Source: Siphonodentalium dalli
Taxonomy: Eukaryota > Mollusca > Scaphopoda > Gadilida > Siphonodentaliidae
Assembly (NCBI GenBank): GCA_032622095.1
Contig: CP136069.1
Span: forward strand, 126,933,450 to 126,997,449
Length of the DNA stretch: 64,000 nt
Direction: 5' to 3'
The translations under genes were made by a program, and so were the position numbers. Position 1 is the stretch's first letter. Every line of letters starts with the position of its first letter. The notes beneath the pieces were generated by a model, which saw nothing but the letters and a program-made list of their open reading frames with translations, made no database searches and was not told where the DNA came from. This document shows positions 8,323-40,200 of this stretch, one piece after another.

Positions 8323-8591
8323 CCCTTCCGTGATTGGAGCTTCCTGAATTTTTGCGAAAACCATGTGCCAATGCACTCTCTTATATATGCGAGTCTCCCA
8401 TAGGGAGCCTCACATATATAAGAGAATGCATTGGCCTTACAATATTTATCTTGACCTTGTAAGCCAGTACATTCTCTCATACATGCGAAGCTCCCTATGG
8501 GAGACTCGTATTGGGAGACTCGCATATATAAGAGAATGCACTGGCACATGATATTTAATGCTGCACCAGCACATCTCCTGCCATGAAAGCG
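8323..8591. mobile_element. TTAA MITE carrying the CCAATGCATTCTC hairpins, copy 1
   Basis: Flanked by TTAA at 8319-8322 and 8592-8595, with ends CCCTTCCGTGATTGGAGC and (rc) CGCTTTCATGGCAGGAG. Inside are two hairpins in tandem (8361-8435 and 8461-8547) built on CCAATGCACTCTCTTATATA, separated by a short spacer with inverted CTTACAATATT/CTTGTAAG-type ends. Confidence 0.85.
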
Positions 8592-8598
8592 TTAAGGG

Positions 8599-9041
8599 GC
8601 CCCAAGGCATTCACATTGGGCACACATCATGTAAAAATATATGTAGAGACGGGCATCAACTTAAGATACCCGCTGGCTGTAGAATAAAATTTATAAATTC
8701 CTGGGATAAGTATGCATATATAATGTAATATTTTATTTGATACATTTGGCGGAAAATTGTACGAGAATATGCTGAAAGTTCTATTCATTGCCTTCCAGTT
8801 TTGCTGCTGTCCATAAAATATTTTTATTCCTGTTGATTCGTACTCCGATCTTTCTCAGTACAGTTAAAAGTTGTCAGAATTTGGTTGACTAACATGTTTT
8901 ATTCCAGAGCGATGTCCATTTTGATTGGCTCTCACACTTGGCATATTGGAAATGTTCTTGTTATTACTTCAGGCTAAACAAATCCCTCAACTACACAAAA
9001 TTTGAGAACAGTCATGAACGTCTGTAAAACAAATATCATCA
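8599..9041. other. No supported feature; weak exon candidate
   Basis: Mostly featureless. After an acceptor-like TTTTATTCCAG (ending near 8908) one frame is open for 39 codons (SDVHFDWLSHLAYWKCSCYY at its start), but no clear donor or similarity supports an exon. Confidence 0.3.
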
Positions 9042-9199
9042 AGTACATGTAAAAATAGATAGTTGTCCAATAACAAAATTTCACAAATCTAAACCGTTAT
9101 TACTGTTATAGCTACATTTACTGATCAAACTAAAATACCAATACAATACCAAAGTTCAATCAAAATGTAAAAGTAAACATTGGAAAAAGTCGCTGTAAA

Positions 9200-9778
9200 A
9201 TTTTGTGAAAACCATGTGCCAATGCATTCTCTTATATATATGCGAGTCTCCCATAGGGAGAATTCATTGGCCTAACAATATTTATCTTGACTTTGTCAGC
9301 CAATGCATTATCTAATATATGCGAGACTCCCTATGGAAGACTCACATATATACAGGGGCGCCGGAAGAGGGGGCAGCTGACCCCCCTGCCCTTGACCAAG
9401 CGCAGGACTTGCCCTTTTTCTGGAGACAGAAAATGCTTTTTTTTTGTGTTTAATCTCGTGTTTTTATAGCAAAATGTTACTTTTTTGGTCCAAATACCAC
9501 CAATTTCACAAGGAATATTAATTTTTTGTCAATTTTATCACAAAACGGCCATAAAAACCGACAAATACCATTAAAATAGGGATTTTTGCCACAATGAATT
9601 TATGGTTATTTTCCCGAGTTTGCGGAGAAAATGCCCTTTTTTGCGGAAAAGTGACCTTTTTGTAGGCTCTGCCCCCCCTGCCCTTGGATGCTTCCGGTGC
9701 CCCTGCATATATAAGAGAATGCAATGGCACAGGATCTTTTAATAATGCTGCACAAGCGCAGCTCCCGTCATGAAAGGG
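9200..9778. mobile_element. TTAA MITE with CCAATGCATTCTC hairpins, copy 2, interrupted
   Basis: Right end TCATGAAAGGG followed by TTAA at 9779-9782. The left end present in unit 2 (CCCTTTCATATCTTGAGCTT) is deleted here, so the family's inner part starts abruptly at about 9200. The right hairpin arm is split by the 352-bp hAT insertion at 9354-9705. Confidence 0.75.
9354..9705. mobile_element. hAT MITE with CAGGGGC ends
   Basis: Ends CAGGGGCGCCGGAAG and CTTCCGGTGCCCCTG, with an exact 8-bp duplication CATATATA at 9346-9353 and 9706-9713. CAGGGGCG is a widespread hAT terminus. The empty site survives in the sister unit near 10730-10745, where CATATATA occurs once. Confidence 0.92.
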
Positions 9779-9968
9779 TTAAGTAACTATTTAACTCTGA
9801 TCAACTGAATAAATTCTCCCATCCATTACTAAAAGTATACACTGGAATGGTCCATTTTAGGGATTTTCAAACTGCAAATACTATACACAGATGACAGGCA
9901 GAGATGCAGTCTGAGGAAGGAATACATGAAGGAATATTTAGTTAATATGTTCAACCAACAGCCTAAGG

Positions 9969-10222
9969 CAAGCCTTGAAATAGCGTGTCTGTCATTTGCA
10001 GAATGAGGTCCCCAGAGGGTGAATTTAGTGATGCTACCCCGCATAGCGGGCTAGCATCACCAAATTCACCCTCTGGGGACCTCATTCTGCTTACACCTCA
10101 GCAGAATGAGGTTCCCAGAGGGTGAATTTGGTGATGCTAGCCCGCTATGCGGGGTAGCATCACTAAATTCACCCTCTGGGGACCTCATTCTGCAAATGAC
10201 AGACACTCTATTTCAAGGCTTG
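9969..10222. mobile_element. hAT hairpin MITE (GCAGAATGAGG family), copy 2
   Basis: Starts CAAGCCTTGAAATAGCGTGT, ends with its complement, and has the exact 8-bp duplication GCCTAAGG at 9961-9968 and 10223-10230. It carries two consecutive hairpins separated by a short TTACACCTCA spacer. The empty site is preserved in unit 2 at about 10988-10995. Confidence 0.93.
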
Positions 10223-10548
10223 GCCTAAGGTTGTTTAACTTATTACTAAGTTATTAGTTGAACATTCCAACCAATGGATCAATGTGAATAAAGTAAAGAT
10301 ATACTATGTTGAACGTAAACTGCCAATTAATCGATTCTGATAACTGAAGCGGCATTTCAAAAAATGTTGTTGTTGGAATCTGATGATATGAGAACATAAA
10401 AATTGTTAGTTGTCCAATAACAAGATTTCACAAATCCAAACCGTTATTACAGTTACATTTACTGATCAAACTAAAATACCAATACAATACCAAAGTTCAA
10501 TAAAAATGTAAAGGTAAACATTGGAAAAGTCGCTGTAACATTGTTGAT

Positions 10549-10801
10549 CCCTTTCATATCTTGAGCTTCCTGAAATTTTGTGAAAACCATGTGCCAATGC
10601 ATTCTCTTATATATATGCGAGTCTCCTTATCGAGTCTCCAATAGGGAGAATACATTGGCCTAACACTATTTGCCTTGACCTTGTCAGCCAGTGCATAATC
10701 TAATATATGCGAGACTCCCTATGGAAGACTCACATATATAAGAGAATGCACTGGCACAGGATCTTTAATGCTGCACAAGTGCAGCTCCCGCCATGAAAGG
10801 G
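10549..10801. mobile_element. TTAA MITE with CCAATGCATTCTC hairpins, copy 3
   Basis: Left end CCCTTTCATATCTTGAGC, right end GCCATGAAAGGG followed by TTAA at 10802-10805. The left TTAA has decayed to TGAT. It contains two hairpin units around CCTAACACTATTTGCCTTGA. Confidence 0.85.
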
Positions 10802-11204
10802 TTAAGTAACTATTTAACTCTCTGATTAACTGAATAAATTCTCCGATCCATTACTAAAATTATACACTGGAATGGTCCATTTTAGAGATTTTCCAACTGC
10901 AAATACTATACAGATGACAGGCAGAGATACAGTATGAGGTTCGAAGGAATATCTGAAGGAATATTTAGTTAATATGTTCAACCAGCAGCCTAAGGTTGTT
11001 TAACTTATTACTAAGTTATTAGTTGAACATTCCAACCAATGGATCAATGTGAATAAAGTAAAGATATACTATGTTGAACGTAAATTGCCATTTATACTCG
11101 AGAAAGACCCCAAGAAGGATCGTAACTTGAAAAATAAAATAATCAATAATTAAGGCCATAAAGGGGTTACCACTCTCATTTGGGCCACGATAGAAATGTA
11201 CTGT

Positions 11205-11283
11205 TTCCCCTGACCCTCCCTATTCCCCTGACCCTCCCATTCCCCTGACCCTCCCTATTCCCCTGACCCTCCCTATTCCACTC
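11205..11283 (+). repeat. C-rich short tandem repeat
   Basis: Four copies of a roughly 20-base unit, CCCCTGACCCTCCCTATT, with small deletions. The strand asymmetry (C runs) could form i-motif or, on the minus strand, G-rich structure. Confidence 0.85.
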
Positions 11284-11321
11284 TGAACACCTCAGGAGTG
11301 TGTTTCACAGCACTTTAAAGA

Positions 11322-11762
11322 TGCATAGTCCGAAATAACGCTCCTAAATTACTACATCTTTGGCTTCGGGGAGTAAAAAATATTTGATTTGAGTCAAGCA
11401 ACCCACCCATCAAAGCTCAAGAGTGATCAGTTATCGATTTTTGAAATTTGTTATTTCCTGAGATATGTAATTTTTGGCGGCCTGGCAGATATCGTCAAGC
11501 TGACGGTCTCGGACCAAATTGCGGATGAAGATGGATATCTCTAATACAAGTGGCTTTGGGCGTTAGATATTTGACAATCCAGCCAAATCTCTTTGAACAA
11601 AATGTTGATAAATAACACGTTTTGGGCAATTTTATACTATAGTTGACTGGTTAACATTATTTTTGGCCAATTAATCGATTCTGATAACTGAAGCGGCATT
11701 TCAAAAAATGTTGTTGTTGGAATCTGATGATATGAGGACCATCGAATCAAACGTAGTATCTT
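11322..11762 (+). repeat. ~430-bp interspersed repeat, copy 2, abutting a splice acceptor
   Basis: Same family as 6718-7120 (inverted there) and 17528-17710. Homology ends at GTATCTTTAA, about 30 bases before the acceptor AG at 11790-11791; the pyrimidine tract of the acceptor lies just outside the shared part. Confidence 0.85.
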
Positions 11763-11791
11763 TAATAGCTGCATTTTTTTTCTCTTTGCAG

Positions 11792-12763
11792 AAAAATTTG
11801 CTGCCAGTATTTCTAGCATCGGAAAGTCCAATAGATGACACAGGGAACTCAAGTTCAAATAACATTCACAACATGTATACATCATTCAGCGGAAATATAA
11901 ATAAACGGGCATCAAATGTAAAACAGAGAAATATGCTCATCGAAACTCACATGGAGGCATCTTTCGTGAACATAGATGTGAAATACAAACACCGGACACC
12001 CATGGTACGATTCATGAGTACACCGTTAGATGTCTCACCACCATGGAATGTGGGAAACAGAAATGGAATTGACGAAGATTTATCTGAAGTTCGAGTTCAT
12101 CGAAAGAAAATGGGAACACCTCGTGCGGGTATAAAATCAGTTTTGAAATACATGAACAAGGCTGAGGCACATAGTAGAAATGAGCATCAAATACATGGAT
12201 TTTTTGATGAAATTCTAATAGGAAGTTTCCATAGGAGTGATATATGTGCACGTGAAATAAGTATTCAAAAGCTTAATGAGACTGAAATTCCAGCCAACAG
12301 AAAGAATAATGGGTTCAACAACTCAGTATCTGATTGTGATGACACTTCATCTGATAGTTTGGAAGAAAGTGAAGCTGACAATGTGAGCTCATTGAAATGG
12401 ATTGGATACGACAGTTCAATTAGCGCAGACAGTGATAACAGCAGTCTGTCGCCCAAATCGACTAGAGTTGTGAAAGCAAGAATAAATGCGTTAACATTAG
12501 ATTCTGTTGTACTTGGTGACACACCTTATGATGACAGTTTAAATGACTCAAAAGATTCTGAAACTGATGAAGGAAAGAGAGACATGTGCACACAGACTGA
12601 TGAAGAAAGTGACTGGCTAATAACTGAAGTTGTGTCTCGATATGCACAGATGAAGAGCACTATTCTTGAGTATAGACTAGCTAGGATCGCCCTCAGATTA
12701 TACCGGCCAATACACAGGTGTGGTGTGAAGGTTTATCTGGTTTCAAGAAACTTATCAAAATGA
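11792..12763 (+). CDS. Terminal coding exon of an unrecognised Ser/Asp/Glu-rich protein
   Basis: A strong acceptor (TTTTTTTTCTCTTTGCAG, ending 11791) is followed by 323 open codons and a TGA at 12761-12763, the longest single host-like exon here. The frame needs phase 0 at 11792; the open frame extends 84 bases upstream only because the intron happens to be open. The N-terminal third is basic and polar (PMVRFMSTPLDVSPPWN, KMGTPRAGIKSVLKYMN); the middle is acidic and serine-rich (SDCDDTSSDSLEESEADN, SADSDNSSLSPKS), likely disordered and phosphorylatable; the C-terminus looks helical (EVVSRYAQMKSTILEYRLAR). I do not recognise a family. It is convergent with SPOUT1, whose stop is 3.4 kb downstream. 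A TTAA element begins 33 bases after the stop, in the presumed 3' UTR. Confidence 0.7.
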   Translation, partial: KNLLPVFLASESPIDDTGNSSSNNIHNMYTSFSGNINKRASNVKQRNMLIETHMEASFVNIDVKYKHRTPMVRFMSTPLDVSPPWNVGNRNGIDEDLSEVRVHRKKMGTPRAGIKSVLKYMNKAEAHSRNEHQIHGFFDEILIGSFHRSDICAREISIQKLNETEIPANRKNNGFNNSVSDCDDTSSDSLEESEADNVSSLKWIGYDSSISADSDNSSLSPKSTRVVKARINALTLDSVVLGDTPYDDSLNDSKDSETDEGKRDMCTQTDEESDWLITEVVSRYAQMKSTILEYRLARIALRLYRPIHRCGVKVYLVSRNLSK

Positions 12764-12968
12764 AGACATAATCACTGAACTGTGACCAATATTTAACCCT
12801 TTCTATACTAAATACTCATTGACGAGTAGTTATCCCTCAGGAAATGTTCAGATATTAGTTCAACTAATGACCATAGTACTAGCATGTCGTTTGCTGAACT
12901 AATTATCTCAACATTTCCCGCCAATGAATATGAATAATTCTGCTCTTAGATTATCTGTCTGTCAGGCC

Positions 12969-13425
12969 AAAGCCTAAATTAAGTGTGCCTGTCATTTGCA
13001 GAATGAGGTCACCACAGGGTGAATTTAGTGTTGCATTCCCGCAGTGGGCTAGCATCACCAAATTCACCCTCTGGGGACCTCATTCTGCATGGCCTTATCT
13101 GCTACGGAAGACAGACTCAGATTTGAAGTTCCCAAATGGTGAATATTGTGATGTACACCCATTGGGAACCTCGATTAGGCTATGTGTCGTCTTCCAATTT
13201 GGGGATATAGAGATACTAAACTAATAAAGAAATAGAATCTATGTGAAGAAGTTTCTATAGAAATTTGATGATAAAGAAACTTTCCAGAGAAGATGAGGCC
13301 TAAGCAGAATGAGGTCCCCAGAGAGTGAATTTAGTGATGCTAGCCCACTATGCGGGATAGCAACACTAAATTCAGCCTCTGGCGAGCTCATTCTGCAAAT
13401 GACAGACACACTGAACTCAGGTTTG
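12969..13425. mobile_element. hAT hairpin MITE (GCAGAATGAGG family), long form, copy 3
   Basis: The outer ends AAGCCTAAATTAAGTGTGCC and GACACACTGAACTCAGGTTT are flanked by GTCAGGCC at 12961-12968 and 13426-13433. Layout is hairpin, ~230-bp centre, hairpin. The centre (CATGGCCTTATCTG...AAGATGAGGCCTAAG) is shared with 37310-38198 and 46690-47108, so this is the fuller family member. Confidence 0.85.
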
Positions 13426-13447
13426 GTCAGGCCACAACAATAAAATA

Positions 13448-13705
13448 GCCTGGTTTACGAACATTTGGGTTGAAGAAAAGTAGATGCAGGATGGGAAAAA
13501 GTAAAAATAAAATTATGCTTCACCACCACAATTGAAAATAGTCTATAAATTTCTCAAGATTATTGAATACGATTAAGTTATACCCAAATTATAAAAATAA
13601 CATGAGGTATTTTAATCACTGTAAACATAAACCAATCAGATAAAAAGTCTTTTCTTTTTTTACAATATTGAGGAAAAAGTTGTGGGAGGGGTTCGTAAAC
13701 CAGGC
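13448..13705. mobile_element. TA-flanked MITE, GCCTGGTTTACGAAC ends
   Basis: Inverted ends GCCTGGTTTACGAAC / GTTCGTAAACCAGGC with TA on both sides (13446-13447, 13706-13707), as in Tc1/mariner-type insertions. 258 bp, no coding. Confidence 0.8.
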
Positions 13706-13827
13706 TATTAAATTTCTGTTGCTTCAGCTGCTTTTATTTCATCGTCACACCTCCAAATGAATAATAGACAGTTCCAATGTACTTTTAAAACTCAATGGGA
13801 GAATCTATTTAGTAATGAAAGGGTTAA

Positions 13828-14478
13828 AGCCAGATGTAGCATTCAGCTTCTTAGTTAAATGATTTCAAATCACCAGATCACATTATATACAACATATTCC
13901 ATATTATATACATGTTTTTGTCGAGGTACCAAGGTGTGTTCTGTGCTTAATTTTTATTCCGGACTGTACTGTAAAGTCTATTATTCTCAATGGAAGGGGA
14001 ATAACTCTATTCTATGTTTGAATTCTGCTGCATTCTGGGTTGAAAACAAAGGCAGTCTTGGAATGAGTATTAGAATCTCTATCACTTGGTGGACACTCCT
14101 AGGCCACACCTGTTCTGCATTCTGGTGGAATATGTATAATATTTTTGGTTCCTCTTCCAAATGGTATATAATATGGAATATGTTGTGTATAATGTTATCT
14201 GGGTATTCAAAAATTAAGTAGGCCTTTAAATGCTTGTATTATATAGCTCTGTCAATGTCAAATGGTAAAAAATAAAATGACGAAAAGTTATGTTTTAGTG
14301 TCAAAACATTCAAGTTTGTTCCGATACTTCTATACTGAGTGTGTCTGTACAAATGGAGCTTTCCACACATATGCGTTAGTGGGAGGAGCTTTTACAGTTT
14401 CTAGCAGATAAGGAGTCTGCCAAAATAATTTAATTAGTTTAACAAAGCTTGCCTTCATGCTGGAGTACGTACATTCTT
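13828..14478. other. No recognisable feature
   Basis: Includes a 120-codon plus-strand open frame (13859-14221) rich in Cys, Trp and Tyr with no motif or splice signal; I do not regard it as a gene. It lies between the ends of two convergent genes. Confidence 0.4.
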
Positions 14479-14482
14479 TTAA

Positions 14483-14561
14483 CCTTTGACATGTTCACTG
14501 CCGATGCCCATTCAATTACATGCAAAATGTACGAGATAACTTGTAGTCGGCAGTGAACGTG
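14483..14561. mobile_element. 79-bp TTAA micro-MITE
   Basis: TTAA at 14479-14482 and 14562-14565 enclose inverted ends sharing GTTCACTGCCGA. It is much shorter than other TTAA elements here and distinct in end sequence. Confidence 0.7.
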
Positions 14562-14721
14562 TTAATTGTGCAACTTAGGACAAGTGTCACACAAAATGAA
14601 AAACAGTGTTATAATCATGAATGAACAACATCATGGTGCAAATATAAATTTCAGAACATTATGATTTGACAACAAAAAGGTTGTTTGAAAATAGGCAATT
14701 TAACACTTAAAAAGTATTGGC

Positions 14722-14812
14722 GGTTCCCTATGGGAGACTCAAATTTATAAGAGAATGCATTGGCACATGGTCTTCACAAAATTTCAGTAAGCTCCAGTCA
14801 TGGAAGGGCTAA
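14722..14812. mobile_element. Right half of a CCAATGCATTCTC TTAA MITE
   Basis: Only the 3' hairpin arm (TCCCTATGGGAGACTC...GAGAATGCATTGGCACATGG) and the right terminus (CTCCAGTCATGGAAGGG) remain; the terminal TTAA reads CTAA. Confidence 0.65.
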
Positions 14813-14921
14813 TATAATACATTTACAGTGGATCATCAGTCGAGTGCTAATGATATATAGTCAGCTGATGGAGCATTCATCAATGAAAAAGAACATCCAT
14901 GACATGATGTTGTAAATTTAA

Positions 14922-15343
14922 CCCTTTACCCAACAGAAGGGCCCTGTGCCAATGCATTCTCTTATATATGCGAGTCGACCATAGGTCGCCCCGCATATAT
15001 AAGAGAATGCATTGGCTTAACACATATATAAGAGAATGCATTGGCTTAACACATTAAAAATTATAAAATTGTTAAAGAATGTAAGAAAAAATGGTAAAAA
15101 GTGTTAAAAAAAGGATTTTTTTTAGGCCAATGCATTCTCTTATATATGCGAGGCGACCTATGGTCGACTCGCATATATAAGAGAATGCATTGGCACAGAG
15201 CATAACTGTAACTATCACAATGTGGTCAAGGAGCCGGTTCCAATGATATCCATATTTGTATGGTTCTATTGAGACAGTCCGAAGATATTTTAGGCTGTTG
15301 AAGCTTTATTTGGCCGGTTTTGGCCGGTTTGTTGGGTAAAGGG
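14922..15343. mobile_element. TTAA MITE with CCCTTTACCCAAC ends and shared hairpins
   Basis: TTAA (14918-14921 and 15344-15347) and perfect 13-bp inverted ends CCCTTTACCCAAC. Two CCAATGCATTCTC hairpins at about 14945-15025 and 15125-15199 flank an AT-rich spacer. The hairpin loops carry GTCGACC-type sequence. The outer ends differ from those of the other hairpin carriers. Confidence 0.9.
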
Positions 15344-15440
15344 TTAATATATACATGCACAGACTAAAGGACATCAGTTATTTGACAAGGCCACATCATA
15401 TGATTTGTAGAAAACTGTATGTGATATATCAAGTTCTAAA

Positions 15441-15750
15441 TTTCTGATATAATATTTCTGATGAGGAGAATTCTGTGTGTTTTTATTAGAGTTTAAAATA
15501 AATATGTTACCAGAATCTGATTCTATTCTACCTTAATTAACCCTTGGACTTTCGGATTTAAAATAGCTTTGTCTGTTTTAAAGTTCCTTTGGGGCTTTCT
15601 GATATAATATTTCTGATGAGGAGAATTCTGTGTGTTTTTATTAGAGTTTAAAATAAATATGTTACCAGAATCTGATTCTATTCTACCTTAATTAACCCTT
15701 GGACTTTCAGATTTAAAATAGCTTTGTCTGTTTTAAAGTTCCTTTGGGGC
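15441..15750 (+). repeat. 155-bp tandem duplication
   Basis: 15441-15595 and 15596-15750 differ at about one position (TTCGGATTT against TTCAGATTT), so the duplication is recent. Confidence 0.95.
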
Positions 15751-16206: not shown

Positions 16207-19200
16207 CTGAAAAAGTGAAGAAAAAAAAGTCAAAGAATATATGCATGGAAAAAATAACTCTACTGTTAAAGATGTATAATCCAAATTCTAATGCACTTAA
16301 CCCTTCGAGTGCCAGGGGCCGATATCATCGGCCCTAAACCTACAAAATAAGTCTGTTAAAGAATATAAGAATAAATTATTAAAATTGTAAAAAATTGTAA
16401 AAAATAAAATAAAAAAATAAAAATGTTAGGCCAATGCATTCTCTTATATATGCGAGGCGACCTATGGTCGACTCGCATATATAAGAGAATGCATTGGCAC
16501 AGGGTATATGAGTTGATACAAAAATCGGACCTGGCACTCAAAGCGTTAAGCCAATATACCCCCGGAAACATCACATATTTGCAGGGGGATATTCACCTGT
16601 CGCAATGTATAGTCCGGTTCGCCGCTTCAATGTTAGATATTCCTATGCGCCAATATTGCCGTCAGCTGACTTCCTTATCTCGTCCATGCCTAATTCAGCT
16701 CCGCTCACTCTTCCGTGTCTCTCCATGACGTCACCCTTACACAGTACATGCCGGCGACATGACGGAGTAGATGCATAGACTTGGTGCCCTGTCTACTGAC
16801 TTCTGTTACTAGCTTGTTGCTATATAAACAAACCAGCGGCGTCGCTTTTGTGGAAATTTGACAGTCAGTACAATCGTCATGTATACATGTACTTTCATAA
16901 AACACAAAACACCACATCGTTATATCCCATCAATAGCATTGTCTCGATATCATTTGACCAAATTTCTTGACATGAAACCGCGACAGACACAGCGTGAAAT
17001 ACATCTCATTCAGTAAACAATTTTCCATTGTTTCATAACATAACTTTCAATTCCACTTCCAGTTCACTGTAAAATCAAAACCGCAATTTGTAAGTGGTAA
17101 ACATCTGAAAAAGACATCAGGTACATGCAGAAACTAATTGTTGTGCATATTTATTTTTATTTGAGGTGGCAATTTTTCATCTTTATCAGCATGTTTAACG
17201 ACAAGAGCGATGCTAATTGAGGGACTATATTTTATCCAGCGCATTAAAATTAAAACAAAAAGTCGTGAATTGGCTGAGTGTTTTCTTTGTCTGCACATTT
17301 CATCGATAATTACAAGGCATGTGTGTGTCGAAATAACGTTTTAAGTTCGAAGAGAATTAGAATGGGATAACAGTGTGGTGTTTTGTGATTTCGGAAAGGT
17401 ACAGGGCGAATATACTGTGGCAAATACCCGTTAATGGGCTCCGGCTCTGCCGTCGTCCATTAACTAAATTTGCCACAGTATATGCGCCCTGTACCTTTCC
17501 GAAATCACAAAACACCACACCGTTATCCCCTAATTAACGCTCCCAAATTACTATTTCTTTGGCTTCGGGGGTAAAACATATTTGATTCGAGTTGAGGAAT
17601 CCATCCATCAAAGCTCAGTGATCAGATATCGATTTTTGAAATCTATTATTTTTCACCGCCGATACATTTGGCGGCCTGGCAAAAAGTCGACGAGAAGTAT
17701 CATTCGATTATAGCCCCTATCCAAGTGAGCCTCAGTGTCATTGACACTTTCATTTTACCTAGTTCTTAACCATTTCTATACTGCATGGATTCTCCCACCC
17801 AGAACAGTGTATATTAGAATGGTCTATCATTAAGTTGGAGGGGTGTTCAGGATATTTAATCAGATGACAGACAGAACAAGAGCATCGTTAGGGTGTGCCA
17901 AAATAAGCATGTGGTAATTGAGTGCAAATTCAAACAAAAATGGCAATAACTTTGGTGAAAATTGGTGGCGGAACCCAAATTCTAACTTGACCTGTATCTA
18001 GTGCTATTAAACAAAATTAAAGTTAAAGTCGCCATCGCAATAATTCTCAATACATGCTCGTTTATTCAAAATCCTATTTAGTTATGCACACTTATTTCAG
18101 AAAACAATCCCCCATTGTCTTAAAAATAGGAGTGTTTACATTTGAGGGTAACAAGGAATGCCTCTCTTCATCAGCGGTTTGACAGATCCAATGATTTGTG
18201 AGAAAGCGTGTGACGTCACACCGTACCTTTGGAATTCCAACAGTAATTTCTCTATGGCAGAGAACAAAATCTTGCCGGTTTCTGAGTCTGACAGTGACAA
18301 TTCATCCATGTCTGATTCAACTTCAGAAGTTATTTTAGTTTCAACAGTGCGTACATGTGTGAGTCGGTATTACAATGAAATCAGTATGGTGTGAGGACAC
18401 CAAATGAACCAATGACGAAGAGATGAACCAATGACGAAGAGATAAACATCGCCAGCTGATTGCCTCTGAGAATGCCATGGTGAGTGAGATTCCTACTCCC
18501 TCCAAACTGTCATGAAGTGTGAAAACATGTGAACAGTCAAACATAAAATTGAAACAAATACTAGCGAGAACCCCCATTATACGAGCAGCCATGTATAATA
18601 ATCATATATTAGTAATGCATACTCAATACAGAAAAATATGAACTCTAATTCCAGGAAAATGTGAGTGTCAACCGATGTGTCAGTCCACAAATAATGTAAA
18701 TTTTATCAAGTATTCAAAGTCTTGACATGCTCATGCAGTCATGGATTAACATTGTATTCAGTTATCAGTATGCACTGGCTAAAAAAAATTATTATTTGCC
18801 AAAAATGAGCTAATTTTCAATGTGATTTTGAATTTTTTTTATCCAAATGACAACATTAAAATTACGCTAGGTAAACGAGATTTTACGATGGCTGATTGCG
18901 ACATTGTCAATACATTTGTCCAAACTCCATTTTTGATTGCGTAAGGAAGTATGACTGGTGCGCTCTGGTAATAATTGCTCGGATTCTACATACAATGAAG
19001 ATGATATGTGAAATTCAAGATGTTTTGCCAGATAGACCCAGAGACATTCTTTGTAGAAAATTTCTTGCCAATTTTGGCTGGAATTATGCAAAACATGTGT
19101 CTCCCCCTTAATGCAGCCAATATCGGATTGAGAGTAGTAATGATGATTCATTTTAGGGTTTTAGGCATCTGATCATTTTATATCATGGTTCAAAATTTCT

Positions 19201-28200: not shown

Positions 28201-31200
28201 TGTACTTGATTTTTATGACTGGAAGAAATTATTAATGACAGGCAAAAACCTATTGCTGCCTCTCTTTTTGACAGGTACAAAAATTTTAGTTATTTCCAGA
28301 TTTGGCCAGTGGACTCATGTACTTTTTGTAAAGTAGTATTCACAGAAGATGAAGTCCAACCTGATGTACACATGCCATTAAGTAAAGTTATTTTTCCTAG
28401 ATATGAAACTGAGTGAAAACTATTTTTGAAATGATAGCAAAGGCTTTACCTGAAATCGTGTAGTGTCAATTCATCGACATGTGTGCCCTTGTCAGATGTA
28501 CCAATTGTCAGATCATACCCGTCTGTGTACGGTGACTCCGTGAAAATAGTACTGAGCCTACTTGCCATCCTGACACTATAGCCCCAGTATAACCCTGCGT
28601 CCGTCCTGGGAGCAGCAGGGGACACAACTGTCCCTTTTGTTTTCTTATCTGGCAGGATAGAATTATATAAAAGTCATTGTCAATTAACAGCACATCATTT
28701 AATGTTTTAGCTATCAGTACCAATCCCCTAAACAATTTTCCAGAGGTATCCAAGCCTGTGTTTAGTGTGCCTGTCATTTGCAGAATGAGGTCCCCAGAGG
28801 GTGAATTTAGTGACGCTATCCCACATAGCTGGCTAGCATCACTAAATTCACCCTCTGTGTACATAATTTTGTAGAGGTATCCCAAGTCTGAGTTTAGTGT
28901 GCCTGTCATTTGCAGAATGAGGTCTCCAGAGGATGAATTTAGCAGGCTAGCATCACTAAATTCTCCCTCTGGGTACCTCATTCTGCTTAGGCCTTGTCTT
29001 AGAAACTTCTTCATATAATAGAATCTATTTAATTTTTAGTTTAGATTCTCAATATCCCCAAATGCACAAGTTGACCACAGCATTTTCTTCTTCCCAATCA
29101 GATTATTATAACTCAGTGCTAACATCGTCCATGAGTGGAGCCCGTTCATTCTTGCCCGACTGAATAAACAAAATTATCCTTTTTTCCAGTTAGCCAAAGA
29201 CGATGTTCATAGTCCAGTTGACCCTTGGAATTGCTCCAACTAATATTCAGATGTCCAGCAAATGATTTCACAATAACATGTGATAGTTTTCCATCTGTAT
29301 TGGGTGACATTTGATTGATATTTAGATGAAAGAACAAATACATGCCTAGTTTGTACATTTGAGATATTCAATTTTAAACCAAAATGTTCTAACCAAATCC
29401 GAATAGATTATTGGAACTGAATCAAATAATGTATCAAATATCAATAACCATTCCATGCCTGGAGCTTCTGCAATTTTGCAAGAACCCTGTGCCAATGCAT
29501 TCTCTTATATATATGAGTCTCCAATAGGGAGCCTTGCATATATAAGAGAATACATTGGCCTAACAATATTTACCTTGACTTCTTAAGTCAGTGCAGGGAT
29601 TCTCTTATATAAGCTCCCTATGGGTGATTCACATATATATGAGAATGCACTGGCACAGGATCTCTAATGCTGCACCATTGCAGCTCCCACCATGAAAGGG
29701 TTAATGAAACATTGCTGTTTTTAACTACCTACAGTAATGCACTAAGTAATCGACTCCTTAAACGCAGCAGAATTATGGGTAACTTTTCAGGATTTAGTCG
29801 GAAATATGGCTTGTTGCCATTCATCGGAAAGCTATACGGCATTACTGTAATTAACTAACCTTCATAATTATCTATTTTGAGGGTGACTCTTACACCTTCC
29901 TTTAATTTTCTGTCTATTTGAACATCGGCCTGTAATTAGAGATGCATGCAGCATAATTATATACATTAAACAGACATGGCTCATTCAAATCCCAAAATTA
30001 GGCCAAAAAAAAAAAAGGTTTTGGTTCTCAGGCCCCGCCGCATTGAATAAAAAGGGCCGCATTTTTTTTTTATCACCATGTTCATAGCAGATATGTGTTG
30101 AATATTAGTGTGCATTGAGCTCTAACATGTAATGTGTTAAAAAGTGACTTGCAGGCTTACAACATGAAGTAGATGACTACAATTAAAATGAAAGTGTCAA
30201 TGACACTGTAGCTCAACTTGGAAAGGGAGTCAATGGAGCGATTAGGAATGTGGAAAGTTGAATGTCTAATACTAGTTTATAGACATGAAGAGAAAAGTAA
30301 AATCCAAGATGGCTGCTGGCGGCCATGTTTTCGGCCGAATGACCCCAAAATGAGTCGTTCCCATCTACATGTCATCGTTAACATCCATGACAAATTTTAT
30401 GATGATCAGACTAAAGGTACGACATGTAGCCCGTGCTAAAGGATTTAGTCATACAAAGAGTAAAATCCAAGATGGCTGCTGGCGGCCATGTTTTTTGGCC
30501 GAATGATCCCAAAATGACTCGTCCCCATCTACATGTCATTATTAACATTCATGACAAATTTTATGATGATCAGACTAAAGGTACGACATGTAGCCCGTGC
30601 TAAAGGATTTAGTCATACAAAGAGTAAAATCCAAGATGGCTGCTGGCGGCCATGTTTTCGGCCGAATGACCCCAAAATGAGTTGTTCCCATCTACATGTC
30701 ATCATCGTTAACATCCATCACAAATTTTAAGACGATCAGACTAAAGGTACGACCTGTAGCCCATGCTAAAGAATTTAGTCATACAAAGAGTAAAATCCAA
30801 GATGGCTGCTGGCGGCCATGTTTTTTGGCCGAATGACCCCAAAATGACTCGTTCCCATCTACATGTCATTATTAACATTCATGACAAATTTTATGATGAT
30901 CAGACTAAAGGTACGACATGTAGCCCGTGCTAAAGAATTTAGTCATACAAAGAGTAAAATCCAAGATGGCTGCTGGCGGCCATGTTTTCGGCCTAATGAC
31001 CCCAAAATGACTCGTTCCCATCTACATTCCAATTTCAACAGCCATGACAAATTTTATGATGATCAGACTAAAAGTACGACCTGTAGCCCGTGCTAAAGAA
31101 TTTAGTCATACAAAGAGTAAAATCCAAGATGGCTGCTGGCGGCCATGTTTTTGGGCCGAATGACCCCAAAATTACTCGTTCCCATCTACATGTCAATATT

Positions 31201-34200
31201 AACATCCATGATGATTAGACAAACAGTACGGCCTGTAGCCCGTGCTAATGGATTGAATTTTGAAATCCAAGATGGCCACTGGCGGCCATGTTTTTTTACC
31301 GAATGACCCCAAAATTAATCATTCTGGTTTAAATGTTGATGTCAACAGCTATGACAAATTTCATAATGATCCGACCAAAGGTACGACCTGTAGCCTGCAT
31401 TGTTGACGCCTTACGTACACACGTACACACGCACACACGGACGACAAAGCCATGGCAATAGCTCAAACTTTACAAAGTAAAGTTGAGCTAAAAATGATTA
31501 GCTGATCCTCATGCTCTTCTTACAATTAGTCATTGTGAACAACTTACACTAATTGTAACTTTATACAATTGAAAGGCACCGGACTGAATTCAGGATCACA
31601 TATTAGAATGGGGAGGTATCAGTTTTTAGACAACAATAACAGTAGTTAATGTCAGGGGCATTATTTATGGTTAGGTAATCCCAGTCATACACTGGTAGTA
31701 CAATGTCATTTTGATATAAGACTAAATGAGTTTATATGCATAACAGTTCCCTCTACCTTTCTGGTTATTACTATAGACAGAGGAAGGTAACTTTGTCCAT
31801 GCTCACTATGCGCAGAAAAAAATAAAAAATAAAAATAAAACCCTCCCTACCTCATTGATTTGAAAAAGAAATTGCCCCGAGAACCAAAACACTTTTTTTT
31901 TTGGCCTTATGTATACAACTTACATCATTTGATAAAGAGGTATCACAAAAGAAACATATCATGGAAGATTTCCAAACAAACTCATCGATATACTGCAGAC
32001 CTTTTTCCCCAGGAAGGGGGATAGAGCCCGAAGCCGCCATCGCACGCCGCCGCCACCAGCCATATTGGCCACAAGCCGGCGCCAGCCATATTATCTCTAA
32101 CGCCAGCCGCATGAAAAAATCTCCGCCGCCAGAATTGTAAAATGGCTGAGCCGTGTGCATGGACTTATATGTTAAGGACAACTGTACTGCGAATCGCAAA
32201 TAACTAAACCGCATTGCCTAATATTGGCATACTCGTATGGACACGGTATGGTTGTTACACTATTAGAACACCCGGGGCCTCTCATTGTGGAATAGACTAT
32301 TCCAATGCATGCTTTCATATAACGGAGTGGGAGCATCCATTCAGTATTGAAAGGGTTTAAATTATAAATTGTTTATTTCGACACGACTCAGTCTCAGACA
32401 TCGCTGACATTTGTCAATATATGCACATAACCTGTAGAAGAGAATAGAAAATAGTTTGAAATATTATATATCAATACTATCGGATTCAGCATTCAATGAT
32501 GCATGCATATATCGCAAGATACCAGTGATGATAGCCGTCTGAAGTCGACAGAAGTCCCAATGTAACTTATACCAATTATATAGATGGGAAACTACATAGT
32601 ACATCCCTGCCAGTCCTCTACTGAGTCCTTCGTGTATTTCGCCATAATGGAAAAGCCCAACACCAAAATAATACGCGTGGTCTGGAATTCTACGGGTTCA
32701 CAACAAAAGCCAAAACAATAGGGTGTCTATAACCGCGAATTAGGAAAATTTCGGAGACGAAATACGCTGAATGATAACGTCTCAGCCAGCTGAGCCGCCA
32801 TATTTCGTCAGCCACGAACGTCGCGACTGAGCCGGCTTAACTAGAAAATTGGTTGAGCCAGCCGTGAAAACTAGTTGTCGTGGCTCTGGGGTCTAAAGGA
32901 GGACCACCAACACTGACGATTAGTAGGTCAAGAAATCATGCACTTGATAGCTGAATAAGACATGATCAGTAGCACATGCCATATGGATAGTTGTCTACAG
33001 TCATGGGTAACTCTTTGTCAGTGAAAGTCAAACTAATCATCACATCAAAGAGACCAGTGACATCAAAGAAATTTGTCCATGCACTCGTTTTCTGTAACAT
33101 CATCACTCTTGAAATGTTGTTCAAAGTGCCAGTTGAAAAAATTCTAATCAATATGAGTCACAAAGAAGGTTTTTATAAAAATAAAACTATGCCCTAACAA
33201 TGCCCGGAGATCAGCAAAAATTATTCTGTTTTATTCCACTGAGAGACCAGAAAACTTATTGCCATCAACAATAGAAAAATGCTCCGGTACAAGACGATAT
33301 AATATGGAATATTCTGGTAATAAAAGCAGACAACAAATAGATGAATAAATAGATAATGACTTTCAATGGTTAGATATATAATCCCACGATTATCCCGGCA
33401 AGTATAGCTTTAGGCAACTTCAAATAGATCGGGCCGGGATTGAATGTGAACAACTTCTTTGATCAGAAAGGGATATTTTAGGGAAATGTTTAGCCCAATG
33501 GTTCAGAGAGATAGGGAAACAACATTATCACAGATATATTTTAATAATTTTTTTGGCAAAACAGATCAAATGTCCACAGTTAGTTCAAATTTGGAAGGCG
33601 ACTTCGTTTTCGCCTCGCAGACATCTGAGGGTGAAGTCGTCATCTCGAAGGCGAGAACTTCGCTCCAGTCACCTCCTAGCTTTGGGCCTGAAGGGAACTA
33701 CTCGTTAATGCGTATTCAGTATAGAGAGGGCTAAACAGGGCTTCAACTTAAAACAGTACTATATCAACCAATATATAACGATTTGTTTTAAGTCAAAGGA
33801 GACTTGTACATGTACTGCCACTACACTCTGCCTATAGATACAGAGGACAAATCTAATAAAGCTTATTAAAATCTTGGTTACGAACCCTGTGAAGTCCAGC
33901 ATCGACAAATGATCCTTTACCCGGCTTGGAGTTTTTATTTAATACAACACCTTCTCTATATGGGCATCGATCTTCTGATCTCATGTGATGCGGACAATCT
34001 AATGGATTCAGCAGACCTGCAAAATTAAACCATTCTAAGTATAAAATTTATAAAACTGCAAAAATTGTATTTAATATTCGTCCAGTGATCCAACCAAAAG
34101 TTTTTGTGCTTGGTCACACACACATCACACATAACCTTTTATATTTGTACGATATTTCGACCGAAAGCAGCAAGTTTTCCTCTTCGATATGAAAACTTCG

Positions 34201-37200
34201 GTGTTGGGTTGTTCCGATATTGCAAAATTGGAACCAGGTAAAATGGAACAATTTGAAGTAATAACATAAGTAAATGAAGTTAAACTTCCCTCAGTAACTT
34301 TCTCTTGCATAAATAAAGGAAAATTGTTTCTTTTTCAGAAATTGTATTAGTTTCCACCTTCAGAAGGACAGATGTAAAATCTTTATATAAAACAACTTTT
34401 CCGGCACATTTCGTTCTTTTTAGCCATCTGAACATGGTGCAATTAGAAAGTAAAACTACTCGGGAATTTCCCACTGATGACCATGACATTTATTATTTAA
34501 ATGATAGATCTAATTTTTATTTCGTTCAGGATTTTGGCAGGGTATCACATCTGTGTGGGCCTATCAACCTTAGTTATTCGCAAGTTATTAAATTGCACAT
34601 TTTTTATTGAACAATCAACTTTATAGAAGTCCACAATGTAATTTTTGCATCCGCGATACAAATGATCAACAAGGGCCAAAAATATCAATGTGGTGGTGCC
34701 TGAGATACAAATATTTAATTTTGGATGGCCTAAATTTACTTATTTTGATCGTAATTCGCAGTAAATCTCTTATCGGATCAGCAATTTGCCATGATTGAGA
34801 CTGCTAACAATATAGAGTTCTCCTTCCTGGTATGCTCCAAATGTTTTCTGTTTTCGCGTAGATTTCAGTACTAACAAGGGTTGCGCATCAAAGATGGCTT
34901 GGTCGAGTTTTTTTTTGCCCATGAGTGCATCTGTCTGACCGAGAATCATTAAAATTGGATGACTAAAGAACCATAACTCGGAACCAAGAGCGTTCAAATT
35001 TGATAGCTCCCATCTAGAGCTGATCCTAAACAAGCATGTAAAGATTGTAAACAATTCTCCAATAAATGTGGGTTGCAGGATGTGCTGATGGATTCACATT
35101 TCGAACTCGTTGGAGATATTGTTGCAACAGACCCATATCCCAAATATCGGTCGACGTTTGTTTGAGTTATCGTGCTAATGGCCTTGCACCCAACTGGACG
35201 CCCACCCGTCGGTTGCCCGGACGCCCACCCACCTATGACCTCGCCATAGCAGAAGTCAAGTTTTTGATAAAACTCGACTTAAAATAGCCCCTAAAACTGT
35301 CTGATGAATGTCATAAGAAATTCTAAATAAAATTTATATTAATTGACAGAAGCTTTTCCAGACAGGTGTCCTTGATTCATATTTATTATTTGATACCCTG
35401 AAAACTATATAACACTCGTGAGGAAGAGATAGACCATATTTAAACATATTTATCTGCATAAATATACAATAGTTTACAATAATTAGGGAATGGGATTGGT
35501 GGAAAAGTGCATATGTCACTTGATGATACCCCCCCCCCCCCATCATTTTTCATAATCTCTGCACATAAATACCATAATTATACCTGCATACTGTAGGTCT
35601 TTGTGCATCGGGAAGAAGCTCTTCCGTAAATACTGCGGACATTCCAGATACTGTAATATTCTAGCCATCTGAACATTGGCTCGGCCTTTCTTCCCAATAC
35701 CATCATAGAACCCCTCTGTAGTCCTGTAATTAATTGCCAGTAGAATACTTAAAATCTATGAAGTATGAATGGTTTGTTTAGAATACAAATTCAACTGGAA
35801 TTTTCCTTTTTGAAATAAACATTTGGATGAGTTGGCACCAACAATGCACATCGGTGGTGATCAAATTTAAATGAAGCATCCTACAATACCAACACATAGG
35901 CGCCCTCGGTAATGCTTTACTACATCACAGCCTCAAGCACATCCATATTTTTCACAAGTGCTTGCCATTAATTGATATTCATGCAATGACAAATGCAAAT
36001 TCATGTTGATTGTACTCTTATCTTTTTCTGGAATTGTGATGTGAAAGCTGATATATTGTATTATTCTCGTTAATTTGTTATCTAGATCCTTGCCAAAACA
36101 TTATTGTCTTTCATAATTTTCTGTGGTGTATACAGTTAAACTTCGTTAAGTCGAACGTCGGTAACTCGAATACCCCACTTAAGTCGACGCCATCGCCTGG
36201 TCCCGGCTGAGCTTGTGAGCAAAGCCATTAGAATAATTACGGTTAAGTCGAAGGTGGATAAGTCGAAATTCCGCTTAAGTCGAAACGAAATTTAGTCCCA
36301 CCAGCCAGATTATAACACTAATTACTATGGTTAAGTCGAAGCGCCGTCTGCGACGCATCGCCATGTGATTATAACTCAGTGTGCTTCTATTCATTACCCT
36401 AAAAAGCTGTGAAGTTTCCTGGAGTCTTTATTTATCCTAATGCATTGTTTATTTAACATATTAACGAGGTGTGGGGGTCAATTTCCCCTGTGAGGATTAG
36501 TAGTGTTGACAGGCGAAATGAAAATCATATTTAAACGACCTGATACAGAGAATAATTTCATTCAGTCATGTCTTCCCAAAACGAAAACAATGTTCCAAAC
36601 GAAGAAATGCTATTGACAAGAAGGCTGAACTCAATCTGAATGTTCTCGATGCCATGACACTGATGCAGCAATCGTGGGCCATATCGGATCGATATGAATT
36701 CAACTGGTTGGAATTTGTGGTCACCAAATGGTCAAAACAGTTAAGTCGAACACTCGGATAACTCGAAGTAATCCAACGGTCCCTTGGGATTCGACTTAAC
36801 GAAGTTTAACTGTATATATATACCAAGATAAATGCCCCCTACTTGAAAAATATTATCAGCCTCAAACAGATAATATACTAATATATTATTTTTCAGGCAA
36901 AGAAAAGGAACTCTCTTTTTAAAAAGTGGCCCTTTTCTGAGAAGTTGAATAATTACTACATATATATATATAATAAAGCTGACACATTCAACTGATATCA
37001 TGGGTTTTCACAATTGGGTATTGAAAAAGAAAATTCCTCTGAAATCAGCTGAAACAATAAAGTTAAAATATTTTAAACTACACACTAAAATTTGAAGCAT
37101 CAGGTAGGAAATTATAAGCAAACAAATATTTTACTAATGTTGGCCACATTTAGAAAAATAATTTACCTCTCGGTGGAACCGCTTTCATCAAATATCACAA

Positions 37201-40200
37201 TTTCATCTATATTAAACACAACTGCTGAACGAGCAATCTGAAAGTAATAGCATAACACACAATAAGGGGGTGATGGTGGTGTGCTTCATGATTTTCAGTG
37301 GTAGCTAGGCAGGCATCAAAATATGGTGCCAGACATTTGCAGAATGAGGTCCCTAAAGAGTGAATTTAGTGATGCTACCCTGCACAGTGGGCTCGCATCA
37401 CTAAATTCACCCTCTGGGGACCTCATCCTGCTCAGGCCTTATCTTCTCTCGAAAGTATCTTTAAAACCAAATTAGCAAGTGTTATAGTTTCTTTAGAAGT
37501 TTAGAAAGTTTCTTTTTCTTTTTTAATTTAGTTTCTCTATATGTGACCCGCCATATCAAATCCGGTCATAAGTCGGGATTTTTTTTACCCTGTGCCAATG
37601 CATTCTCTTATATATGCGAGTCGACCTATATAAGAGAATGCATTGGCCTAACAATTTTTTACAATTTTAATAATTTGTTCTTGTATTCTTTAACAATTTT
37701 ATAATTTCACCCATACAGAGCCCCAGACAAACATGAGCAGACGACACTCTTCTATATGCTTCTATATATGTGTGGGGCTCCCTGCAGGGTAATGGATGTT
37801 TTTTATTTTATGTCCTAAAAATTGTAAGAAACATTTATTTAAAAAACTGTTAGGCCAATGCATTCTCTTATATATGCGAGGCGACCTATGGTCGACTCGC
37901 ATATATAAGAGAATGCATTGGCACAGGGTAAAACAATCCCGACTTACGACTGGATTTGATATGGCGGGTCACATATCCCCAAAATGGCAGATGATATAAC
38001 GCACCATCGAGATTCCCAATGGGTGCACATCACCATCTTAAATCTGTGTCTATGTCTCCCATAGCAGATGGGGCCATGCAGAATGAGGTTCCGAGAAGAT
38101 GAATTTGGTGATGCTAGCCTGCTGTGCGGTGTAGTGTCACAAATTCATCCTTTGGGAACCTCATTCTGCAAATGTCCAGCACCCTATTTTGAGGCCTGTA
38201 GCTAGACCACTATAGGCTTCAGTGGAAGTCATGATGTGCTTTTAGTGATGACGTCACCTGTCCGTTTCATTTCAAATTGATCTTAAGCAACATCTGCTCA
38301 CCCATAAAAGCCACCTTGTAGTGTATGGTACACTTTTTCATTATATCTGTTGCTCAATTGCAATAAGGTTTTGGCCTTTGATTGCCAGTAGAATACTTAA
38401 AACCTATGAAGTATGAATGGCTTGTTTAGAATACAAATTCAACATGCAATCAAGATGAGTATTTTCAATTTACTGACATGTTGGCAATAAGCAGTTCTGT
38501 GTAAGAGATCAAACAAAATTTGACAAGATGATCAGACACACTATTTGCAAGCTTGAAGAGATAATGGAACAAAAGGCTAACTGGCATGTTAAGCAGATTC
38601 CAATCCAAAATATTTTATTTGCAAAAACTTTACCTGGATATAAACCACATGAGCTCACATAAAATGGTTTAACAGAATAAAAGGCTGCTCGGCTAGTTTC
38701 ATCCCAAATGGTGGCTTCATTTGGAGTGGGTGCTTTGTAGAAATGTATTATATACTGGTAGATAATATACTTATAAGTTATGTTAATTATAAGTTGAAAA
38801 TTATTAGTAAATGATATTAACTTGGGGGTACGGAATATAAATTGGAACTTGATCTGTATTATCATATGAGTAATCCATATACCAAATTTGAAAAAGAACA
38901 GATCACTATAACTAAAGCTATCACCCGGAAATAATTGTCAAATTATAAGTCAACTATGACAATAATGCCTGTAAATATAAGAATACGGGACCCAAATTCG
39001 GACTAGACCTGTATTTTCATATGAGTAATCCATATGCCAATTTTGAAAACAAACAGATAACAATTACTAAAGCTATTACTGAAAACCAAAATATTCGTCA
39101 AATTATAAGTCAACAAGGACCATAACACCAGTAAAAATAACACCGAATCCAAATTCGAACTTGACCTGTATTTTCTTTCATGCGAGTAATCCATATACCA
39201 AATTTGAAAACAATTAGATAACTAAAACTAAAGTTATCACCTGGAAAACAATATAATCAGCAAATTCTAAGTCGACAAGGACCATAACTCCAGCAAAAAT
39301 GGGCGGACACAACCCAATTTCGAACTTGATAACTAAAACTAAAGTTATCATCCGGAAACCATCTGTGATGGACACACGGCTCAACACCTGAGGCAGTACT
39401 TGTGTGAACACTTACTTGTGAGCTGCAGACAACAGGTCGATTTTTGTATCAACCCATATACCCTGTGCCAATGCATTCTCTTATATATGCGAGTCGACCA
39501 TAGGTTTTTTTTTTTTACAATTTTAATAATTTATTCTTATATTCTTTAACAGACTTATTTTGTAGGTTTAGGGCCGATGAGATCGGCCCCTGGCACTCAA
39601 AGGGTTAAACAACATTTCAAAGTGATCATTTGTGAGCTGCAACTCACAAGTGCAATATCACCTCACAAATCCATTGTGTATGCCTGATTTCCAAAATATT
39701 TAACTCACAAGTGCACTCTAATATGAGTGGACGTATGAAAGGACGGATGCAGGGATGGACAGATACCACTGATTGCTATAGTCCCCCGAATTTTTTTTTC
39801 ATGGGGACAATTAAATCATTGTTAGGAGAGCATGACTGTACATGACATTGTTGACATAATGTTAATCAGTTGACTTTAATCATTGTGGTAACAAAATGGA
39901 TGGAATAATTTGTATCTCGTTATAAAAGTGACATCACTTTTATTTGTGGCGGGGAATATATATACCTGGCCAGCGAGATATGTCCTGAGTTCCATTGACT
40001 GTGCATTGTCCAGTATTGATCCGGGTAGTGCAATCGATACTGTATATTTTCTGCCTGAAAATAAAAACATGCATGTCCCAGTCTAAGTTAACTTCAAACC
40101 CACAGATTACTTTGTCAGTCTGACTAATTAAATTAAAGCACAGGGTAGTCTCCAGCAAATCAAGATTATGTCTCAACATCGAATCACTCCTCCGATCTCA

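What the first reader, a model, noticed from the sequence alone, without database searches (positions are those of the whole stretch)
8361..39510. One palindromic core shared by at least four unrelated transposon families
The hairpin CCAATGCATTCTC-TTATATATGCGAG-(GTCGACC or CTCCC)-CTCGCATATATAAGAGAATGCATTGG occurs at 8361, 9218, 10590, 14945, 15125, 16433, 29490, 37594, 37855 and 39467. Its carriers have different outer ends: CCCTTTCATGGC (TTAA), CCCTTTACCCAAC (TTAA), CCCTTTGAGTGCCAGG (TTAA) and TGTGACCCGCC (TA). In most carriers two hairpins flank a spacer, with CCCTGTG outside and TTAGG/CCTAAC inside. MITE families usually differ in their middles and share their ends; here the middle is shared and the ends differ. 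Either the paired-hairpin module is itself mobile, or the ends have been exchanged by recombination. A core that moves between transposon shells would be unusual.
Basis: partly seen in the sequence, partly recalled or inferred. Interest (0 to 1): 0.75.

Follow-up and report, generated by a model that had tools for sequence, protein, structure and literature searches.

The report
Hairpin core shared among mini-transposon families
A DNA hairpin, usually paired and present at least 120,000 times in this large eukaryotic genome, sits inside several unrelated kinds of small transposon, and for one kind the genome still holds intermediates that show how the hairpin core got a new outer end.

Summary
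The observation largely holds. A 67-base hairpin of fixed polarity (CACAGGG outside, CCTAAC inside) lies in four short-transposon (MITE) shells; six of the ten listed hairpins have both arms, and others were missed. Genome-wide there are 123,984 exact copies of its outer arm plus CACAGGG, so local duplication is excluded. Shells B, C and D have CCCTTT ends and TTAA sites (piggyBac type). Shell A has GTGACCC ends and AWWT sites, so it probably needs another transposase. The D end occurs with the core (10,963 exact) and without it (8,437). No mixed A/B/C element appeared among 68 fully assigned hairpin pairs, and no standalone core was recognised. For D, intermediates survive: a coreless MITE 'F' lies at a TTAA native to the core, F's outer end moved together with the D end, and the abundant copies lack F's inner end. 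The parent of that event was not found, and how A, B and C got the core is inferred only. Coral CMITEs (PMC2872659) already show conserved middles with different piggyBac-type ends, so this is a larger, better-resolved variant of a known kind.

The parts
8323..8591 (.). B-shell MITE (CCCTTCCGTGATTGG...CATGAAAGCG, TTAA both sides) with two hairpins (8367-8435 and about 8463-8545)
9197..9778 (.). B-shell MITE, left end lost (start approximate), right end CATGAAAGGG|TTAA; first hairpin shortened, second split by a nested element
9353..9705 (.). nested element CAGGGGCGCCGGAAG...CTTCCGGTGCCCCTG with 8-base duplication CATATATA inside the hairpin of that B copy
   Evidence: the label hAT-like is recalled, not tested
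10549..10801 (.). B-shell MITE (CCCTTTCATATC...CATGAAAGGG|TTAA, left duplication decayed), first hairpin shortened
14719..14808 (+). right part of a B-shell MITE with half a hairpin (start approximate)
14922..15343 (.). C-shell MITE (CCCTTTACCCAACA ends, TTAA both sides) with two hairpins, spacer and an extra half arm at 15019-15044
16301..16545 (+). D carrier: left end from MITE F, one hairpin, right D end; TTAA both sides
16349..16369 (+). scar junction AAGTCTG|TTAAAGAATATAAG where the inner F end (GCACTGAAAGRG) is missing
16430..16498 (+). core hairpin of the D carrier (33-base stem with one mismatch, 3-base loop); DNA fold of 16424-16504 is -38.7 kcal/mol, z -15.3
29448..29700 (.). B-shell MITE (right end CATGAAAGGG|TTAA; left duplication decayed) with two hairpins, the second degraded
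37542..37973 (.). A-shell MITE (TGTGACCCGCC...GGCGGGTCACA, AWWT target) with two hairpins, the first shortened
39433..39604 (-). D carrier with truncated D end and half a hairpin; same AAGTCTG|TTAAAG scar on the minus strand

Best explanation
The shared middle is a passive passenger: a two-hairpin core that came a few times to lie between new pairs of transposon ends, after which each new element was multiplied by the transposase that recognises those ends. For shell D the steps can be read from surviving forms. (0) A coreless MITE 'F' exists on its own. (1) F lies at a TTAA that is native to the core's spacer; I infer that the core then sat in a D-ended element. (2) F's left end and the D right end, both of the CCCTTTSAGTGCC type, moved together, so F plus half a core plus the D end reached new TTAA sites as one unit. 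(3) F's inner end is intact in some copies, carries GAG for GGG in others, and is gone by a 12-base deletion in the abundant ones; the order of mutation and deletion is not shown. (4) Further internal deletion gave the short D carriers of the window. Shown: the structures, and that the intact inner end must precede its loss. Inferred: the D-ended parent, joint use of F and D ends by one transposase, and any help the loss of the inner end gave. For A, B and C, capture by ectopic gap repair or template switching is inferred only.
For: Same end with and without the core: D end on the core 10,963 exact, D end in a coreless palindromic MITE 8,437 exact (coreless examples). Of six exact F right ends with GGGTTAA, one is a standalone F (L121) and five run on into core and D end (L119, L120, L122, L123, L124). 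The GAG form followed by TTAAAGAA has 279 exact copies; two were fetched (L125, L126) and both run on into hairpin and D end. The deletion form has 7,957. From the TTAA inward L123 matches the A-core consensus at 41 of 43 bases (counted by eye), and the TTAA context is uninterrupted in the A core and in the long-spacer B copy L090. Composites L058 and L060 have unrelated flanks beyond TTAA. Spread: 123,984 exact core ends. Two target types: A 33 of 39 matching dinucleotides against a shuffled maximum of 28; C TTAA on both sides in 19 of 21.
Against: The predicted parent, a full core between two D ends, was not seen among 72 hairpin pairs. Only one standalone F was seen, among six exact matches. 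Of 23 distinct D ends with enough sequence, 7 were not assigned to the series by the script: two of these (L060, L088) are composites with a changed junction, two (L030, L047) have F-like left ends with other interiors, and L038 (two) and L044 were left unexplained (for those printed). L123 lacks F's left end and L119 lacks the left TTAA. Exact counts favour young families, so the rise from 5 to 279 to 7,957 may reflect age. The route is shown for one shell of four, and the shared sharp outer edge at CCCTGTG in A, B and C is not explained by it.
Confidence: 0.62

Rival explanations
1. The paired-hairpin core is itself mobile and jumps between transposons with its own enzyme.
For: Constant outer edge (CCCTGTG) in four shells and very high copy number. 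A, D and one further flank type have TA next to CACAGGG.
Against: CACAGGGTTAA only 315 exact copies. C and B flanks of the core show no shared duplication (by eye). No empty A palindrome with up to 30 bases in its middle, apart from one deletion product. No standalone unit recognised among 171 distinct outward flanks, 11 of them unassigned.
Confidence: 0.1
2. Shell ends were exchanged by recombination or gene conversion between hairpins of different MITEs, the palindromes acting as breakage hot spots.
For: Near-perfect 33-base stems, over 100,000 exact core ends and several shortened hairpins in the window. Could account for the A, B and C founders.
Against: 0 mixed in 68 fully assigned hairpin pairs (39 A-A, 20 C-C, 9 B-B; 4 more have an unassigned end). 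A genome-wide count could not be run. CCCTGTG lies outside the hairpin yet is shared, so an exchange inside the hairpin would not carry it.
Confidence: 0.18
3. All shells are one ancestral element whose ends drifted.
For: B, C and D all begin CCCTTT and use TTAA.
Against: D ends without the core in thousands and a standalone F. A uses another target and unrelated ends. The A (second), C and D consensus hairpins are identical while the ends are unrelated; C and D loci were partly chosen by an exact arm match.
Confidence: 0.03
4. The core is kept because it raises transposition or shields the element (cis enhancer, or hairpin RNA that affects silencing).
For: Presence in four shells and two target types. 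Of 17 paired stem changes (3.7 expected), 16 fall at three stem positions that distinguish B-type hairpins. Hairpins in A diverge less than the ends (1.4% against 2.9%, p 0.0003). A role of the middle was suggested for coral CMITEs (PMC2872659, Discussion read).
Against: Within 31 A copies the hairpin diverges like the spacer (1.4% and 1.7%, p 0.43). After insertion changes are mostly one-sided (87 one-sided, 17 paired; 44 hairpins). D elements with the core outnumber coreless ones only about 2.6-fold if each coreless element carries two such ends. No Rfam match in 8001-40000.
Confidence: 0.15

Closest known systems
CMITE families of Acropora corals (PMC2872659; abstract, search passages, second part of Results and the Discussion read)
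   Same: MITE families with different, mostly CCCTTT-type ends and TTAA sites but a strongly conserved shared middle; tandem arrays; a new element made by a CMITE inserting at a TTAA inside another unit.
   Different: Coral middle is 75 bases, elements about 100 bases, up to 737 estimated copies per family, all TTAA. Here the core is two 67-base hairpins with a spacer, over 120,000 exact ends, one shell has a non-TTAA target, and intermediates of an end change survive. No sequence comparison with the coral core was run.
AgaP2-P12MITE of Anopheles gambiae (PMC1562414; one section and passages read)
   Same: A MITE whose two ends come from two different elements; explained there by joint movement of neighbouring copies (macrotransposition) and later internal deletion.
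   Different: P-element ends with 8-base duplications; no shared palindromic core; no intermediates in the passages read.
MER6 with the SINE V domain (PMC6887750; abstract and section 2.4 read)
   Same: A conserved core shared by elements of different classes, riding the burst of a DNA transposon.
   Different: Core comes from a SINE, is not described as a hairpin in what I read, and joins one MITE family and its variant.
Xenopus MITEs with palindromic internal repeats and sea urchin TU foldback elements (recalled, not looked up)
   Same: Internal palindromes or repeats in MITE-like elements.
   Different: Not compared here.

Membership tests
MITE (non-autonomous cut-and-paste element) | short, inverted terminal repeats, target duplication, no open reading frame | tested here: met
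   A 424-477 bases (42 copies), C 347-427 (22 used), D-ended 180-476; inverted ends; TTAA or AWWT; no ORF of 150 aa or more overlaps the listed window elements
piggyBac-type MITE (shells B, C, D) | TTAA duplication and CCYT ends | tested here: met
   C 19 of 21 and D-ended 16 of 22 with TTAA on both sides, 6 of 22 D on one side; B only read by eye in the window, both sides in one copy, right side in three more; ends CCCTTT
piggyBac-type MITE (shells B, C, D) | matching autonomous element in the genome | tested here: inconclusive
   128 PF13843 matches; 16 segments beside 8 copies read: no hairpin arm within 6 mismatches, a CACGTTGAGTGCCGG end resembling D in two, but no matched pair of TTAA ends was found in any copy, so true ends may lie outside the segments
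piggyBac-type MITE (shell A) | TTAA duplication | tested here: not met
   AWWT context, matching dinucleotides in 33 of 39 (2-base, or 4-base AWWT, duplication)
CMITE-like group | middle conserved between MITE families more than the ends | tested here: met
   hairpin consensus identical in A (second hairpin), C and D; ends unrelated. Caveat: C and D loci partly chosen by an exact arm match
CMITE-like group | sequence homology to the coral CMITE middle | not tested
   the 60-base coral consensus is printed in the paper; no alignment was run
Composite MITE by nested insertion and joint end use | two ends from different elements, intact inner end in some copies, lost in others | tested here: met
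   five copies with intact inner end, GAG form, 12-base deletion form; joint use of the ends by one transposase not tested
Self-mobile hairpin module | constant target duplication at module edges | tested here: not met

The most novel reading that the evidence does not exclude
The hairpin core is a hyper-parasite of transposons: its palindromes make it prone to being copied into broken transposons of any superfamily, or make any shell that carries it more mobile, so that the same core has spread through successive transposase systems (TTAA and AWWT users) and reached over 100,000 copies without an enzyme or ends of its own.
Probability: 0.2. Interest if true: 0.8.

Novelty: new variant of a known kind. 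Interest (0 to 1): 0.5.

Why it matters
Where MITE middles come from, and why a middle recurs in unrelated families, is open: the coral CMITE paper calls the origin of its conserved middle a mystery. This genome gives a case with a very large copy number, a core found with two target-site types, and surviving intermediates that show one concrete way a MITE gets a new end: insertion of another MITE into the core, joint movement of the outer ends, and loss of the inner end. That makes the process testable by counting intermediates and by excision assays.

Tried and rejected
Core as a TTAA unit (CCCTGTG as its own end): rejected, 315 exact CACAGGGTTAA against at least 123,984 core ends. Core inserted at the TA in the centre of a palindromic A element: not supported, only one A palindrome with a short middle, a deletion product that still has CCCTGTG...CACAGGG. 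Hairpins specially conserved after insertion: not supported against the spacer in 31 A copies; they do diverge less than the ends, which may reflect A subfamilies. Arm-to-arm correction: 17 paired changes against 3.7 expected, but 16 lie at three positions that distinguish B-type hairpins. Known RNA: no Rfam match at gathering score in 8001-40000. Viral relatives: no exact hit in viral contigs for a 23-base arm pattern. The window's LINE had no match in the phage collection. The organism was not identified; one literature search for a 9-chromosome 2.2 Gb mollusc, read as a listing only, gave no clear candidate. Prior-art searches in the held papers. A genome-wide count of A/C hybrids could not be run. 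In the C and D samples the loci were partly chosen by an exact hairpin match, so hairpin divergence there was computed for C but not used.

Full report
What is there. The window lies in a 2.23 Gb, 9-contig genome that holds piggyBac transposases and, in the window, a LINE; the organism was not identified. The arm CTCGCATATATAAGAGAATGCATTGG has 22 matches in the window and none in 100 shuffles. The hairpin has a 33-base stem with one mismatch and a 3-base loop; 16424-16504 folds at -38.7 kcal/mol as DNA, z -15.3. It is polar: of 323 arm matches (up to 4 mismatches) in the first 61 sequences, 113 are followed by CACAGGG and 94 by CCTAACA. Of 133 hairpins with CACAGGG-like sequence outside, 89 have exactly the loop GCGACCTATGGTCGA, and one of the 25 loops listed is in reverse; 89 of the 133 also carry the exact 33-mer that was used to find many of them.

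How much there is. The exact 33-mer (arm plus CACAGGG) occurs 61,883 + 62,101 = 123,984 times, and 0 times for the reversed control. Exact counts are lower bounds. The 40 best matches to the A copy lie on all nine contigs. Larger tandem blocks also exist: about 14.56 kb and 11.17 kb spacing near the start of C1.

The shells. A: TGTGACCCGCCATATCAAATCC..., in an AWWT context; matching dinucleotides in 33 of 39 elements (shuffled mean 20.7, maximum 28), A at -3 in 38 and T at +3 in 37. B: CCCTTTCATGACTGGAGC... C: CCCTTTACCCAACA..., TTAA on both sides in 19 of 21. D: CCCTTTGAGTGCCAGG, among 22 D-ended elements TTAA on both sides in 16 and on one side in 6. Of 171 distinct outward flanks, 82 were A, 35 C, 27 B, 16 D and 11 unassigned. 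Of 72 hairpin pairs, 39 were A-A, 20 C-C, 9 B-B and 4 had an unassigned end; none was mixed. D carriers have one hairpin and are not in the pair test. The sample is 30 loci chosen by similarity to the A copy, 70 chosen around exact hairpin matches at the start of C1, 16 segments beside piggyBac genes, and the window, so proportions are not genome-wide.

With and without the core. The D end joined to the core has 10,963 exact copies and the same end in a coreless palindromic MITE 8,437 (coreless examples L006:268-476 and L035:1976-2155, 0 arms; they carry this end on both sides). For A, 13,185 of 15,175 exact inner ends are attached to CAGGGTA, as expected if nearly all young A copies carry the core. 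A palindromes with a middle of up to 30 bases are absent apart from one deletion product. Sixteen segments beside eight piggyBac copies show no hairpin arm within 6 mismatches, but no matched TTAA ends were found there either, so this is weak evidence.

How D got its core. D carriers have a left end that is that of another MITE, F. L058, L060 and L088 contain a nearly whole F, then the core, then the D end, with TTAA and unrelated flanks outside. Six exact F right ends with GGGTTAA exist: L121 is F alone; L119, L120, L122, L123 and L124 run F right end, TTAA, core spacer, hairpin, D end (L123 lacks F's left end, L119 lacks the left TTAA and L120 has a decayed right TTAA). In the A core consensus and in the long-spacer B copy L090 the same sequence is uninterrupted (TTGTTAAAGAATACAAG and TTGTTAAAGAATGTAAG), and L123 matches the A core at 41 of 43 bases from the TTAA inward (counted by eye). 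So F lies at a TTAA native to the core, and F's outer end plus the D end became the new pair. The inner F end reads GAG in 279 exact copies (two fetched, both run into hairpin and D end) and is gone by a 12-base deletion (AAGTCTG|TTAAAG) in 7,957. The intact inner end must come first because it completes F's end; whether deletion copies came from GAG or GGG copies is not shown. Both D carriers in the window carry the scar. In a script that sorted 23 distinct D ends, 8 were deletion forms, 5 intact, 3 GAG and 7 unassigned, of which L060 and L088 are composites with a changed junction and L030 and L047 have F-like left ends. That one transposase handles F and D ends follows from their common CCCTTTSAGTGCC start and from composites at new sites; it was not tested. 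The expected parent, a full core between two D ends, was not seen. Exact counts also reflect age, so a causal role of losing the inner end is open.

What remains inferred. For A, B and C only the result is seen. Sharp edges at CCCTGTG suggest a few founder events; ectopic gap repair or template switching into a broken transposon is the mechanism I think most likely, as proposed for P-MITE middles (PMC1562414, section read). Recombination between hairpins is less likely given no mixed A/B/C pair in 68, but a rare founder event is not excluded. A self-mobile core lacks a target signature. A function for the hairpin is not excluded: it diverges like the spacer within A (1.4% and 1.7%, p 0.43) and less than the ends (2.9%, p 0.0003), and 16 of 17 paired stem changes sit at three positions that distinguish B-type hairpins.

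Comparison. Coral CMITEs (PMC2872659) have different ends, mostly CCCTTT-type, a conserved middle, TTAA sites, tandem arrays, and a new element formed by insertion at a TTAA. AgaP2-P12MITE (PMC1562414) has ends from two subfamilies, explained by macrotransposition. MER6 (PMC6887750) carries a SINE core. So the kind is known; what I did not find in the held papers (searches, mostly read as listings) is this scale, a core found with both TTAA and non-TTAA shells, the paired hairpins, and a surviving series of intermediates.

Noticed in passing
window 9998-10193, 12998-13396, 28780-28986, 37339-37431, 38078-38114, 46705-47041, 7515-7551: A second hairpin family (GCAGAATGAGGTCCCCAGAGGGTGAATTTAGTGATGC...), often as two hairpins around a spacer; a 27-base part of it was found in 20 of 126 fetched loci. 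It may be a second shared core.
   Followed up: partly
window 9353-9705: 353-base element with CAGGGGC ends and an 8-base duplication CATATATA inserted inside a core hairpin.
   Followed up: partly
L038, L039 (C1 about 540-545 kb): Tandem array of B-type hairpin units with about 97-base period.
   Followed up: no
L017: A-type cores repeated at about 460-base spacing with a linker in place of the A ends.
   Followed up: no
G000 C1 735,735-779,435 and 820,017-920,855: Core copies spaced about 14.56 kb and about 11.17 kb, suggesting large tandem segmental repeats near the contig start.
   Followed up: no
window 58753-61323: Interrupted LINE: reverse-transcriptase pieces in two ORFs and a weak endonuclease match in a third.
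   Followed up: no
window 17391-17500: Inverted repeat around GTACAGGGCGAATATACTGTGGCAAAT...GCCACAGTATATGCGCCCTGTAC, seen by eye, not examined.
   Followed up: no
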